This document shows positions 44,332 to 47,865 of a stretch of DNA of 52,833 nucleotides, one piece after another (positions within the stretch are counted from its first letter, which is position 1; the number at the start of each line of letters is the position of its first letter). The DNA is from Sphingomonadaceae bacterium (GTDB lineage Bacteria; Pseudomonadota; Alphaproteobacteria; Sphingomonadales; Sphingomonadaceae), in the NCBI GenBank assembly GCA_025359685.1, contig JANYEY010000035.1, positions 1 through 52,833 of the forward strand. Direction: 5' to 3'. Both the position numbers and the translations under genes were made by a program. The notes beneath the pieces are model-generated. The model saw only the letters and a list, made by a program, of their open reading frames with translations, did no database searches and was not told the DNA's origin.

Positions 44332-45624
44332 ATGGATTTCGATCCCACCGAACGGCAAGTCTATTGGCGCGACCGCGTCCGCCAGTTCATCGAAAACCAC
44401 GTCCGTCCCCGGCAGGGCGACTACAAGGCGCAGGACCAGGCCGGTGAACGCTGGAAGGTGCTGCCGGTGGTCCAAGAGGAAAAGGCCCGCGCCAAGGCGC
44501 AAGGGATCTGGAACCTGTTCATGCCGCCGCAGGCCGGCCGCGCCCACGTGGACGATACCTTCGAATTCGAAGGCCCTGGGCTGACCAACCTTGAATACGC
44601 CTTGTGCGCCGAGGAAATGGGCCGCGCCGGGTTCGCCAGCGAAGTGTTCAACTGCTCCGCGCCCGATACCGGTAACATGGAAGTGCTCCACCGCTACGGC
44701 ACCCGCGACCAGAAGGACCAGTGGCTCGCGCCGATCATGAACGGCGAAATGCGTTCGGCCTTCCTGATGACCGAACCCGCGGTGGCCTCGTCCGATGCGA
44801 CCAACATCGAAACCTCGATCCGGCGCGACGGCGATGAATATGTCCTCAACGGCACCAAATGGTGGTCGTCGGGCGCAGGCGATCCGCGCTGCAAGATCGC
44901 GATTGTCATGGGCAAGACCGATTTTGAGGCCAAGCGCCACGCCCAGCAATCGATGGTGCTGATGGAACTCGACGCTCCGGGCGTCGAGATTGTCCGTCAC
45001 CTGCCGGTGTTCGGCTATGACGATGCCCCGCACGGGCACATGGAAATCAAGCTCAACGACGTTCGCATCCCGGCCAGCAACATGCTGCTGGGCGAAGGCC
45101 GCGGGTTCGAGATCGCGCAGGGCCGCCTCGGGCCAGGCCGCATCCACCACTGCATGCGCACCATCGGCGTGGCCGAGGAAGCGATTGGCAAGATGGCCAA
45201 GCGGCTCCAGACGCGCGTCGCCTTCGGCAAGGCCGTGTCGGAACAGTCGGTATGGGAACAGCGTATCGCACGCGCGCGCATTGACATCGAGATGACCCGT
45301 CTGCTGTGCCTCAAGGCCGCCGACATGATGGACAAGGTCGGCAACAAGGCTGCTGCCGCCGAAATCGCGATGATCAAGGTCCAGGCACCGATGATGGCGC
45401 TACGGATCCTTGATGATGCGATCCAGGCGCACGGCGCGGGCGGTGTTTCCGAAGACTTCGGGCTCGCCTCGGCCTGGGCGCATCAGCGCACGCTGCGGAT
45501 CGCCGATGGTCCCGACGAAGTGCACAACCGCGCGATCGCCCGGATCGAGTTCGCCCGTCACTCGGCCAATGCGCCGAAGACCGACGGCGCGTTCAGCTCG
45601 GGCGACGTCGGCGTATCGCGCTGA
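44332..45624 (+). CDS. Acyl-CoA dehydrogenase of the ACAD11 type
   Basis: A 430-residue flavoprotein. The blocks FNCSAPDTGNMEVLHRYG, MTEPAVASSDATNIETSI, KWWSSGAGDPRCKIAIV and GRLGPGRIHHCMRTIGVAEEA, plus RIADGPDEVHNRAIARIE at the end, match from memory the ACAD domain of human ACAD11 more closely than ordinary fatty-acid ACADs. The family is known to act on phosphorylated 4-hydroxyacyl-CoA intermediates made by an APH-fold kinase, and such a kinase is encoded two genes downstream. The ATG at 44332 has AGGAAAGGA upstream. This is the strongest lead to the function of the island. Confidence 0.93.
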   Translation: MDFDPTERQVYWRDRVRQFIENHVRPRQGDYKAQDQAGERWKVLPVVQEEKARAKAQGIWNLFMPPQAGRAHVDDTFEFEGPGLTNLEYALCAEEMGRAGFASEVFNCSAPDTGNMEVLHRYGTRDQKDQWLAPIMNGEMRSAFLMTEPAVASSDATNIETSIRRDGDEYVLNGTKWWSSGAGDPRCKIAIVMGKTDFEAKRHAQQSMVLMELDAPGVEIVRHLPVFGYDDAPHGHMEIKLNDVRIPASNMLLGEGRGFEIAQGRLGPGRIHHCMRTIGVAEEAIGKMAKRLQTRVAFGKAVSEQSVWEQRIARARIDIEMTRLLCLKAADMMDKVGNKAAAAEIAMIKVQAPMMALRILDDAIQAHGAGGVSEDFGLASAWAHQRTLRIADGPDEVHNRAIARIEFARHSANAPKTDGAFSSGDVGVSR

Positions 45625-45629
45625 GTAAA

Positions 45630-45671
45630 CCGGCATCCCGGGTTCGCCCGGGATGCCGGATTTAGCTTTTT
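45630..45671 (+). terminator. Long hairpin with TTCG loop between the ACAD11-type and alcohol dehydrogenase genes
   Basis: A perfect 13-bp stem, CCGGCATCCCGGG (45630-45642) with its complement (45647-45659), is capped by the very stable TTCG loop. It is followed by ATTTAGCTTTTT, so it is a plausible, perhaps leaky, terminator or attenuator inside the cluster. It begins six bases after the ACAD stop. It could lower expression of the downstream ADH and kinase or protect the 3' end of the upstream mRNA. Confidence 0.75.
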
Positions 45672-45686
45672 GGAGAGATAAAGAAC

Positions 45687-46778
45687 ATGAAAGCAGCCGT
45701 CCTCGTTCAGGCCCATCAGCCGCTCGAAATCGAGCAGCTGACGATCAGCAAGCCCGGCCCGCACGAGGTTCTGATCCGCACCGCCGCCTGCGGCCTGTGC
45801 CATTCGGACCTGCATTTCATCGAAGGGACTTACCCGCACGCCATGCCAGCGGTGCCGGGGCATGAAGCCGCCGGAATCGTCGAAGCGGTCGGCAGTGAAG
45901 TGCGCACGGTCAAGGTCGGCGATGCGGTGGTGACTTGCCTGTCGGCCTTCTGCGGGCACTGCGAATTCTGCGTTACGGGCCGCATGGCGCTGTGCCTTGG
46001 CGCCGAAACGCGCCGCCCGGTCGGGGCCGAACCGCGTCTCACCCGCAGCAGCGACGGCTCGCCGGTGGCGCAAATGCTCAACCTTTCCGCCTTTGCCGAA
46101 ATGATGCTGATCCACGAACATGCCTGCGTCGCGATCAACCCCGATATGCCGCTTGACCGGGCGGCGGTGATCGGCTGCGCGGTGACCACTGGCGCGGGCA
46201 CGATTTTCAACGCCTGCAAGGTCACGCCGGGCGAGACCGTCGCGGTGGTCGGCTGCGGCGGAGTTGGCCTTGCCACGATCAACGCCGCCAAGATTGCCGG
46301 CGCGGGGCAGATAATCGCCGCCGATCCCATGCCCGAAAAGCGCGCCTTGGCGATGAAGCTTGGTGCGACGCATACAGTCGATGCCTCAGACCCCGATGCG
46401 GCCAAGATGATCCAGGAAATGAGCAAGGGCGGGGTCGATCACGCGGTCGAAGCGGTCGGGCGTCCGGCTTCGGCGCAGCTCGCGGTCAGTTCACTGCGGC
46501 GCGGCGGCACGGCGACTATTCTGGGCATGATGCCGCTCAATGAAAAAGTCGGGCTGTCGGCAATGGACTTGCTCTCGGGCAAGAAACTGCAAGGCGCGAT
46601 CATGGGGATGAACCACTTCCCGGTTGATCTGCCGCGGCTGGTCGAGTTCTACATGCGCGGGCTGCTCGATCTCGACTCGATCATTGCCGAACGCATTCCG
46701 CTTGAGCAGATCAATCAGGGCTTCGACAAGATGAAGACCGGCGCCTCGGCGCGCAGCGTTATCGTGTTCGAGCAGTAA
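45687..46778 (+). CDS. Zinc-dependent alcohol dehydrogenase (MDR superfamily)
   Basis: A 363-residue medium-chain dehydrogenase. The catalytic zinc ligands are C38 in CGLCHSDLHF and H59/E60 in VPGHEAAG. The structural zinc lobe is CLSAFCGHCEFCVTGRMALC with four cysteines. The Rossmann loop is GCGGVGLATINAAK. It probably oxidises a primary or secondary alcohol, or glutathione- or CoA-linked substrate, using NAD. It has a GGAGAG ribosome binding site and sits 14 bases before the kinase gene. The segment from C-terminus to stop (SARSVIVFEQ) is normal. Confidence 0.93.
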   Translation: MKAAVLVQAHQPLEIEQLTISKPGPHEVLIRTAACGLCHSDLHFIEGTYPHAMPAVPGHEAAGIVEAVGSEVRTVKVGDAVVTCLSAFCGHCEFCVTGRMALCLGAETRRPVGAEPRLTRSSDGSPVAQMLNLSAFAEMMLIHEHACVAINPDMPLDRAAVIGCAVTTGAGTIFNACKVTPGETVAVVGCGGVGLATINAAKIAGAGQIIAADPMPEKRALAMKLGATHTVDASDPDAAKMIQEMSKGGVDHAVEAVGRPASAQLAVSSLRRGGTATILGMMPLNEKVGLSAMDLLSGKKLQGAIMGMNHFPVDLPRLVEFYMRGLLDLDSIIAERIPLEQINQGFDKMKTGASARSVIVFEQ

Positions 46779-46791
46779 AGGACCAAGCTGC

Positions 46792-47865
46792 ATGAGCGAG
46801 GCAATCAACGCTGAGGAAGCCTTTGTCGGCACGGTCGAACCCGAAGGCGCGGACAAGCTGGATGAGGGCAAGCTCGCCGACTGGATGGCGGCCAACGTCA
46901 CCGGCTTCGAAGGCCCGCTGCACCTGACCAAGTTCAAGGGCGGGCAATCGAACCCGACTTACAAAATCGCCGCGCAAAGCGGGAACTATGTGCTGCGGCG
47001 CAAGCCGTTCGGAGTGCTGCTGCCCTCGGCCCACGCGGTTGACCGTGAATACCGGGTCCAGGCCGGGCTTCACAAGACGGGCTTCACGGTCGCGCCGCAG
47101 TATGGCCTGTGCACCGACGACAGCGTGGCCGGATCAATGTTCTACGTGATGGGGATGATCGACGGCCGCACCATCTGGGACGGGGCCATGCCCAAGGATG
47201 CGCCAGCCTATCGCCGCGCCACTTACGAAGCGATGATCGATACGCTGGCAGCGTTGCACAACACCGATGTTGCTGCGGCCGGCCTGTCCGAATTCGGCAA
47301 GCCGGGCAACTATTTCGGCCGCCAGATCGATCGCTGGACCAAACAGTATCGCCTGGCTGAAACCGAGACGATCCCCGAGGTTGAGCGGCTGATCGAATGG
47401 CTCCCGGCGACCATGCCCGAGCAGGACCGCACCAGCGTGGTCCACGGCGATTACCGCATCGACAACATGATCTATGCGCATGACCGGCCTGAAGTGCTCG
47501 CCGTGCTCGACTGGGAACTGTCGACTTTGGGCGATCCGCTCGCCGATTTCACGTATGTTTCGATGGCTTGGGTGACCGAAAACGGCGGCCGTTCGGGCGT
47601 TGCCGATCTTGACCGCAAGGCGCTGGGCATTCCGGAACAGGAAGAGGTGGTCGAACGCTATTGCGCCGCCACCGGGCGGGACAGCGTGCCCGACATGAAC
47701 TGGTACTTCGCCTACAACTTCTTCCGCCTGACGGGGATCCTGCAGGGCATCAAGAAGCGGGTGATCGATGGCACCGCCAGCTCATCCCATGCCAAGGAGC
47801 AGAGCGAACGGGTCAAACCACTCGCCGAACGCGCCTGGGACTTTGCGGTGAAAGCCGGAGCCTGA
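46792..47865 (+). CDS. APH-fold phosphotransferase, ACAD10/ACAD11 kinase-domain type
   Basis: A 357-residue kinase-like protein. The catalytic loop is VVHGDYRIDNMIY (H218, D220, N225), and the metal-binding motif is LDWELSTLGDPLADF (D240). The N-terminal lobe has KGGQSNPTYKI and LLPSAHAVDREYRV. These blocks match from memory the N-terminal domain of human ACAD11 and LvaA of the levulinate pathway, which phosphorylate the 4-hydroxyl of acyl-CoA esters. It is the last gene of the plus-strand arm, close behind the alcohol dehydrogenase. The AAAGGA ribosome binding site supports the start. Confidence 0.92.
   Translation: MSEAINAEEAFVGTVEPEGADKLDEGKLADWMAANVTGFEGPLHLTKFKGGQSNPTYKIAAQSGNYVLRRKPFGVLLPSAHAVDREYRVQAGLHKTGFTVAPQYGLCTDDSVAGSMFYVMGMIDGRTIWDGAMPKDAPAYRRATYEAMIDTLAALHNTDVAAAGLSEFGKPGNYFGRQIDRWTKQYRLAETETIPEVERLIEWLPATMPEQDRTSVVHGDYRIDNMIYAHDRPEVLAVLDWELSTLGDPLADFTYVSMAWVTENGGRSGVADLDRKALGIPEQEEVVERYCAATGRDSVPDMNWYFAYNFFRLTGILQGIKKRVIDGTASSSHAKEQSERVKPLAERAWDFAVKAGA

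What the first reader, a model, noticed from the sequence alone, without database searches (positions are those of the whole stretch)
44332..47865. Both halves of animal ACAD11 are encoded as separate neighbouring genes
The dehydrogenase at 44332-45624 carries GRIHHCMRTIGVAEEA, MTEPAVASSDATNIE and RIADGPDEVH blocks, and the kinase at 46792-47865 carries GQSNPTY, LLPSAHAVDREY, HGDYRIDN and LDWELSTLGDPLAD blocks. From memory these match the C- and N-terminal halves of human ACAD11. The established role of ACAD10/ACAD11 and of the Pseudomonas levulinate pathway is phosphorylation of a 4-hydroxyacyl-CoA followed by elimination. I infer that this island degrades 4-hydroxy or similarly hydroxylated acids through a phosphorylated intermediate, with a zinc alcohol dehydrogenase lying between the two genes. 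This is the best candidate here for a poorly described system.
Basis: partly seen in the sequence, partly recalled or inferred. Interest (0 to 1): 0.78.

Follow-up and report, generated by a model that had tools for sequence, protein, structure and literature searches.

The report
Split ACAD11 island in sphingomonads
A sphingomonad bacterium carries close relatives of the two halves of the animal enzyme ACAD11 as two separate genes inside a conserved gene island, which is predicted to break down 4-hydroxy acids through a phosphorylated intermediate.

Summary
The protein at 44332-45624 is an ACAD11/LvaC-type enzyme, not an ordinary acyl-CoA dehydrogenase: its best solved relatives are ACAD11 (E about 1e-130; 57% identical to mouse over the aligned part), it groups with mouse ACAD11 at 100/100 support, and it keeps the published 4-phosphate-binding and catalytic residues. 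The protein at 46792-47865 is the matching kinase (39% to mouse; D220, N225, R176 kept). The genes travel together: in 148 other genomes of the family both occur in 110, the kinase alone in 7, the dehydrogenase alone in none; in 119 other Pseudomonadota 28, 1 and 0. The pair lies in a divergent eight-gene island (SDR1, two ACADs | SDR2, MFS_2 transporter, dehydrogenase, Zn-ADH, kinase) shared with Novosphingobium, Sphingopyxis and others, with a conserved promoter box. No CoA ligase lies in the island and no LvaB-like gene fits between its rightward genes. Most likely it removes a 4-hydroxyl by phosphorylation and redox-neutral phosphate elimination so that beta-oxidation can proceed; nothing was assayed. 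That chemistry is in print (lva operon; ACAD10/11). My capped searches listed no paper on the island itself. The substrate is undetermined; a lactone-derived 4-hydroxy acid is my best guess.

The parts
44332..45624 (+). ACAD11/LvaC-type flavoenzyme, 430 aa (called LvaC-like here); predicted 4-phosphoacyl-CoA phosphate-eliminating enzyme
   Evidence: PDB matches; residues R265, R270, H273, R276, D392, H236; clade with mouse ACAD11 100/100
46792..47865 (+). ACAD11-kinase/LvaA-type phosphotransferase (APH fold), 357 aa; predicted 4-hydroxyacyl-CoA kinase
   Evidence: PDB matches; D220, N225, R177; tree
45687..46778 (+). Zn-dependent alcohol dehydrogenase between the two; role unknown
   Evidence: Pfam ADH_N and ADH_zinc_N; best solved matches are class I/III type ADHs; present in 71 of 71 named loci with room
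42820..44244 (+). MFS_2 transporter (GPH type, below the NCBIfam cut-off); predicted importer, substrate unknown
   Evidence: Pfam MFS_2 E 3e-109; 62 of 65 named loci with room
41942..42823 (+). SDR2, short-chain dehydrogenase; first gene of the rightward row, overlapping the transporter start by 4 bp
   Evidence: 60 of 65 named loci with room
41863..41913 (+). Candidate divergent promoter/operator: box CCGTAGCG 41863-41870, TTGAC 41886-41890, CCTAAGCT 41906-41913
   Evidence: CCGTARCG in 71 of 74 loci (0.6 after shuffling), CCGTARCG then TTGAC in 71 of 74; loci are related
40608..41771 (-). Large subunit of an acyl-CoA dehydrogenase pair (pimC-like, below cut-off); start ATG chosen by me
   Evidence: best solved match 6wy9/6wy8 Tcur3483
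39467..40606 (-). Small subunit of the acyl-CoA dehydrogenase pair (pimD-like, below cut-off)
   Evidence: best solved match 6wy8_A Tcur3481
38612..39427 (-). SDR1, short-chain dehydrogenase; best solved match is a rhamnolipid-biosynthesis 3-oxoacyl-ACP reductase
   Evidence: 58 of 58 named loci with room
37735..38604 (-). SMP-30/gluconolactonase-fold protein (possible lactonase), accessory; GTG start chosen by me
   Evidence: Pfam SGL E 1e-39; distant solved matches; found in 13 of 80 named and 4 of 40 family loci

Best explanation
The island encodes a kinase and a flavoenzyme of the ACAD11 type that are predicted to phosphorylate the 4-hydroxyl of a 4-hydroxyacyl-CoA and then eliminate the phosphate, giving a 2-enoyl-CoA that beta-oxidation could use. 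Inferred steps: (1) a 4-hydroxy acid, perhaps released from a lactone or ester (possibly by the SMP-30-fold protein), is taken up, perhaps by the MFS_2 transporter; (2) a CoA ligase encoded elsewhere activates it; (3) the kinase moves phosphate from ATP to the 4-OH, with D220 as base; (4) the flavoenzyme holds the phosphate with R265, H273 and R276, takes the alpha proton with D392, lends a hydride to FAD and gets it back, and expels phosphate without net redox change; (5) the paired ACADs, the two SDRs and the Zn-ADH carry out other oxidations or reductions of the chain. Shown here by sequence: family, active-site residues, co-occurrence, island conservation. Taken from published work on relatives: the chemistry of steps 3 and 4. 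Inferred: substrate, uptake, and the roles of the other genes.
For: ACAD11 is the best solved match of both proteins' family. Mouse residues R626, H634, R637 and D753, whose substitution abolished or cut ACAD activity, and D220, whose substitution abolished kinase activity, plus modelled R631, N225 and R176, are all kept in the window (PMC12440821 passages and section 7). The five dehydrogenase residues are kept in 104 of 104 orthologue rows that cover them and the kinase set in 120 of 120; none of 8 other ACADs of the genome has the set. Clade 100/100 with mouse ACAD11. Co-occurrence 110 both / 7 kinase only / 0 dehydrogenase only / 31 neither in the family, and 28/1/0/90 across the phylum. 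Related loci add FadJ, or CoA ligase, thiolase and enoyl-CoA hydratase.
Against: No enzyme assay, mutant or expression data. The paper's kinase residue R86 does not fall on an arginine of the printed chain or of the window. In 35 of the 110 family genomes with both genes no listed pair lies within 12 kb. In 9 of 40 sampled family loci the dehydrogenase-ADH-kinase triplet is absent or rearranged. No CoA ligase in the island. The cut-offs differ (kinase looser than dehydrogenase), which favours 'kinase only' over 'dehydrogenase only'. The lactone link is weak: the SMP-30-fold gene was found in few loci.
Confidence: 0.77

Rival explanations
1. [quoted passage not shown]
For: Same two key enzyme types and SDRs at hand; lva operon chemistry as summarised in PMC6692424 (passages).
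Against: No CoA ligase in the island and no room for LvaB between the rightward genes; an ACAD pair and a transporter absent from the described lva operon. The kinases of two other sphingomonad loci that look more lva-like by content (L194, L202) lie on a separate long branch from the window's. Which SDR would be LvaD was not tested.
Confidence: 0.1
2. The island serves a cyclic or steroid-like acid: the paired ACADs are a side-chain or ring-propionate dehydrogenase and the kinase and flavoenzyme remove a hydroxyl on the way.
For: The best solved matches of the large ACAD are 6wy9/6wy8 (Tcur3483) and 4x28, and of the small one 6wy8 (Tcur3481); that these are steroid-type heteromeric ACADs is recalled. 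A Croceicoccus locus with both genes holds four ACADs, thiolase, esterase and a TonB receptor.
Against: Those matches are distant (E about 1e-39 to 1e-43). Passages of a 2026 paper on bile salts in Caenibius tardaugens hold no 'phosphotransferase' or 'kinase'. Steroid ring genes were not searched for in this genome.
Confidence: 0.2
3. The island is a housekeeping salvage route for 4-hydroxy acids that arise from lipid peroxidation, rather than a growth pathway.
For: Near family-wide presence of the pair (110 of 148); mammalian ACAD10/11 act on 4-hydroxy acids; the ADH is of the class I/III type.
Against: A dedicated transporter and ACAD pair fit imported substrate better; plasmid-borne versions with TonB receptors and esterases exist.
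Confidence: 0.15
4. Ordinary acyl-CoA dehydrogenase beside an unrelated antibiotic-kinase-like gene.
For: Pfam sees only generic ACAD and APH domains, and records name such genes 'acyl-CoA dehydrogenase' and '(aminoglycoside) phosphotransferase'.
Against: Residues, clade, co-occurrence.
Confidence: 0.03

Closest known systems
ACAD11 (and ACAD10) of mammals
   Same: Both parts, 57% and 39% identical to mouse over the aligned 381 and 324 residues; same catalytic and 4-phosphate-binding residues
   Different: Two separate genes with a Zn-ADH gene between; no HAD domain; part of a catabolic island
[quoted passage not shown]
   Same: Separate kinase and ACAD-type enzyme plus SDR genes; same predicted chemistry (described from PMC6692424, PMC9399607 and PMC11342911 passages)
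   Different: No ligase in the island, no LvaB-sized gene between the rightward genes, different gene set (ACAD pair, MFS_2 transporter, Zn-ADH). Sequences of LvaA and LvaC were not compared directly
Solved bacterial proteins 4hr3 (ACAD) and 3dxp (kinase)
   Same: 4hr3 is 208 of 399 identical to the window dehydrogenase; 3dxp is the best solved match of the kinase
   Different: Titles are 'putative acyl-CoA dehydrogenase' for both; no function seen in the records. Their organisms are recalled, not shown by a call
FadJ-LvaC-LvaA loci of other sphingomonads (L196-L199; Sphingobium plasmid L207)
   Same: Same enzyme pair next to beta-oxidation genes
   Different: Pair directly adjacent, without the Zn-ADH, ACAD pair or divergent layout of the window island

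Membership tests
ACAD10/11-LvaC type flavoenzyme | 4-phosphate-binding residues R626, H634, R637 and catalytic Asp D753 (mouse ACAD11) | tested here: met
   R265, H273, R276, D392 in the window; 104 of 104 orthologue rows covering them
ACAD10/11-LvaC type flavoenzyme | Groups with ACAD11 apart from ordinary ACADs | tested here: met
   25-row group at 100/100; LvaC itself not in the tree
ACAD10/11-LvaC type flavoenzyme | Eliminates phosphate from 4-phosphoacyl-CoA without an electron acceptor | not testable with these tools
   needs an assay
ACAD11/LvaA-type 4-hydroxyacyl-CoA kinase | Kinase residues D220, N225, R176 and overall alignment to the ACAD11 kinase domain | tested here: met
   tree
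ACAD11/LvaA-type 4-hydroxyacyl-CoA kinase | CoA-contact residue R86 of mouse ACAD11 | tested here: inconclusive
   Position 86 of the printed chain is F; a neighbouring R-E pair (R84-E85) is kept as R85-E86
ACAD11/LvaA-type 4-hydroxyacyl-CoA kinase | Phosphorylates 4-hydroxyacyl-CoA | not testable with these tools
   needs an assay
lva operon | LvaE-type CoA ligase in the operon | tested here: not met
   no ligase family among the island proteins
lva operon | LvaB (12 kDa) in the operon with LvaA | tested here: inconclusive
   gaps between rightward genes are 87, 62 and 13 bp, so no gene fits there; LvaB sequence not available; also absent near the P. citronellolis genes (PMC6692424 passages)
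lva operon | Required for growth on levulinate | not testable with these tools
   needs a mutant

The most novel reading that the evidence does not exclude
The island is a near-core, separately regulated sphingomonad pathway, not a levulinate operon: it lets beta-oxidation run through a lactone-forming, 4-hydroxylated lipid (isoprenoid, cyclic or long-chain) by spending one ATP to turn the blocking 4-OH into a leaving group, and it is an undescribed bacterial setting of the ACAD11 enzymes in which their natural substrates can be found by simple genetics.
Probability: 0.35. Interest if true: 0.62.

Novelty: new variant of a known kind. Interest (0 to 1): 0.42.

Why it matters
Genes annotated only as 'acyl-CoA dehydrogenase' and '(aminoglycoside) phosphotransferase' in most sampled genomes of a large environmental bacterial family get a specific, testable joint function. 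The island offers a bacterial system, with cultured relatives such as Novosphingobium and Sphingopyxis strains, in which ACAD11 chemistry, its natural substrates and its regulation could be studied by gene removal, and unfused enzymes that might turn gamma-lactones or levulinate-like acids into beta-oxidation intermediates.

Tried and rejected
Ordinary dehydrogenase plus chance neighbour: rejected by residues, clade and co-occurrence. Fusion in bacteria: among close family pairs there are overlaps of 7 and 25 bases and gaps of 2-76 bases, which suggests neighbours; reading frames were not checked row by row. The lactonase idea is kept only as a weak lead: the SMP-30-fold gene was found in 13 of 80 named loci (about 10 kb of upstream DNA at most, often less) and 4 of 40 family loci, and its best solved match is distant (E 6e-15). 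A scan for perfect palindromes in the divergent promoter found none in the window; alignment instead gave the CCGTARCG box; a promoter pattern with a 17-base spacer had no match because the spacer was guessed wrongly.

Literature: ten searches of an open-licence library listed no paper that describes this island; several lists were capped (for example 12 of 63, 5 of 791, 8 of 611), so this is weak evidence of novelty. Read: PMC12440821 passages and section 7; PMC11342911 passages and section 13; passages only of PMC6692424, PMC9399607, PMC12882949 and PMC10653915; listings only for the rest. The primary lva paper is not held. P. putida LvaA/LvaC sequences were not obtained. No structure was predicted, since sequence matches to solved ACAD11 were already clear.
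Full report
What is there. The dehydrogenase is far closer to ACAD11 (E about 1e-130; 216 of 381 aligned residues identical to mouse) than to any other solved ACAD except 4hr3; the next one is at E 9e-37. The kinase matches 3dxp and then the ACAD11 kinase domain (126 of 324 aligned residues identical to mouse). The window is a whole 52.8-kb contig of a 2.58-Mb, 88% complete genome; the nearest named kinase (98%) is from a MAG titled Sphingomonadaceae bacterium.

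Active sites. In mouse ACAD11, substitution of D220 removes kinase activity, substitutions of R626, H634 and R637 and of the catalytic D753 stop or cut the ACAD step, H597 substitution only lowers it, and R631, N225 and R176 are placed by modelling (PMC12440821, passages, section 7). Numbering was fixed by the two mutant chains printed (D220 changed in 8v3u, D753 in 8v3v). The window has D220, N225 and R177 in the kinase and R265, R270, H273, R276, D392 and H236 in the dehydrogenase. The five dehydrogenase positions R, R, H, R, D are kept in 104 of 104 orthologue rows that cover them (35 family loci, 69 named loci; the two sets may share organisms), the kinase set in 120 of 120 loci; none of 8 other ACADs of the genome (of 12 matched) has the set, while the second ACAD11-type copy of the genome has it. 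The paper's R86 could not be placed on an arginine.

Clade. In a tree of 34 ACAD rows the window protein, 10 island orthologues, mouse ACAD11, 4hr3 and 12 sphingomonad paralogues form one group at 100/100 on a branch of 1.98 changes per column, apart from 6 ordinary ACADs of the same genome and from the island's own ACAD pair; one long row from a weak hit (L193) lies just outside (90/71). In the kinase tree of 27 rows the mouse domain falls among bacterial kinases in an 11-row group with 3dxp (100/99), and the window in a 6-row group of island kinases (100/100); the kinases of L194 and L202 lie on a separate branch of 3.1. Mouse is a long branch with odd composition there, so its place is unsure.

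The two genes belong together. In 148 other genomes of the family (kinase at E<=1e-40, dehydrogenase at E<=1e-90) both occur in 110, the kinase alone in 7, the dehydrogenase alone in 0, neither in 31. In 119 other genomes drawn across the phylum (E<=1e-30 and 1e-80; two of them also in the family sample) the counts are 28, 1, 0 and 90. Listed pairs lie within 12 kb in 75 of the 110 family genomes, 60 of the 78 pairs being on one strand with the dehydrogenase 0.9-2 kb upstream, and within 5 kb in 17 of the 28 phylum genomes, in several gene orders. Genomes are related and my cut-off was looser for the kinase, so the Fisher values overstate the case; still, a dehydrogenase without a kinase was not seen in either sample, as expected if it depends on the kinase's product. 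In the window's own, incomplete genome the second dehydrogenase copy (contig 5) has no kinase beside it.

The island. Leftward: SDR1 and two ACADs, with an SMP-30-fold gene beyond SDR1 in this genome. Rightward: SDR2, MFS_2 transporter (starts overlap by 4 bp), then after gaps of 87, 62 and 13 bp the dehydrogenase, the Zn-ADH and the kinase. All eight core genes in this order occur in 52 of 80 named loci (Novosphingobium, Sphingopyxis, Sphingorhabdus, Tsuneonella and unnamed sphingomonads; many loci are cut by contig ends) and in 12 of 40 sampled family loci; the triplet dehydrogenase-ADH-kinase in 67 of 80 and 31 of 40. Where the named contig reaches far enough, ADH is present in 71 of 71, dehydrogenase in 66 of 66, large ACAD in 63 of 63, small ACAD in 60 of 60, SDR1 in 58 of 58, SDR2 in 60 of 65 and transporter in 62 of 65. 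The named set is the best 80 of 175 matches (kinase identity 76% or more) and the 40 are mostly the closest kinases of 118 genomes, so these figures describe that lineage; among the more distant of the 40 the surroundings differ (L075, L079, L080 and L081 have no dehydrogenase beside the kinase; L058, L063 and L066 have no ADH between). Downstream, the window lineage has a subtilase autotransporter and dapD, whereas Sphingopyxis loci have two more SDRs, a beta-lactamase-fold serine hydrolase and FadJ (46-51 of 80 named loci). FadD-like ligase, enoyl-CoA hydratase, hotdog thioesterases and a further ACAD lie nearby in 6, 5, 6-7 and 8 of the 40. In other loci the pair stands with FadJ or with FadJ, CoA ligase, ACAD, thiolase and enoyl-CoA hydratase (Sphingobium TomMM15 plasmid), and in Croceicoccus marinus both genes lie in one region with four further ACADs, thiolase, FadJ-like protein, MaoC, esterase and TonB receptor.

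Regulation. The stretch between the two gene rows keeps a CCGTARCG box in 71 of 74 loci (0.6 after base shuffling), 8-30 bp before TTGAC in the same 71 of 74; in the window at 41863-41870 and 41886-41890. The loci are related, so this is a lead to a shared operator, not proof.

How it would work. Published work on relatives (PMC11342911 section 13; PMC12440821 section 7) gives: kinase plus ATP makes 4-phosphoacyl-CoA; the flavoenzyme needs redox-active FAD yet no outside electron acceptor, and is proposed to remove the alpha proton, move a hydride to FAD, expel phosphate and return the hydride, giving 2-enoyl-CoA. Everything about the substrate and the other genes is inference. That 4-hydroxy acids close to gamma-lactones is general chemistry (recalled), which makes a lactone- or ester-derived substrate plausible; the paired ACADs and SDRs suggest more than one oxidation round. 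The distant likeness of the paired ACADs to 6wy8/6wy9 and 4x28 leaves a cyclic or steroid-like acid possible.

Known or new. The chemistry, the split arrangement and the ACAD11 likeness of bacterial enzymes are in print. I saw no description of the eight-gene island, its promoter box or its spread in ten capped searches. I therefore call it a new variant of a known kind, of moderate interest.

Noticed in passing
L191:6845-12161 (own genome, contig 5): A second ACAD11-type dehydrogenase (55% to the first, active-site set kept) sits after an SDR and before a Zn-ADH, next to an amidohydrolase_2 and an Fe-ADH gene, with no kinase beside it; the same-genus locus L194 does have a kinase, SDR, dehydrogenase, ligase-like gene and ADH.
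   Followed up: partly
PDB entry 3dxp: A solved kinase-domain protein is titled 'putative acyl-CoA dehydrogenase', a name that fits the other half of ACAD11.
   Followed up: no
L206 (Croceicoccus marinus plasmid, 400-430 kb): A rich plasmid cluster holds both genes with four further ACADs, thiolase, FadJ-like protein, thioesterases, esterase and TonB receptor; it may point to the substrate class.
   Followed up: no
L196, L197, L198, L199: A second kind of locus in the family: FadJ-like, dehydrogenase and kinase genes directly adjacent, without the Zn-ADH.
   Followed up: partly
window 41863-41870: CCGTARCG box kept in the divergent promoter in 71 of 74 loci; its regulator is unknown.
   Followed up: partly
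window 47870-50287, - strand: A subtilase-type protein of 805 aa, autotransporter-like, faces the kinase gene tail to tail, 4 bp away; it recurs there in 19 of 80 named loci.
   Followed up: no
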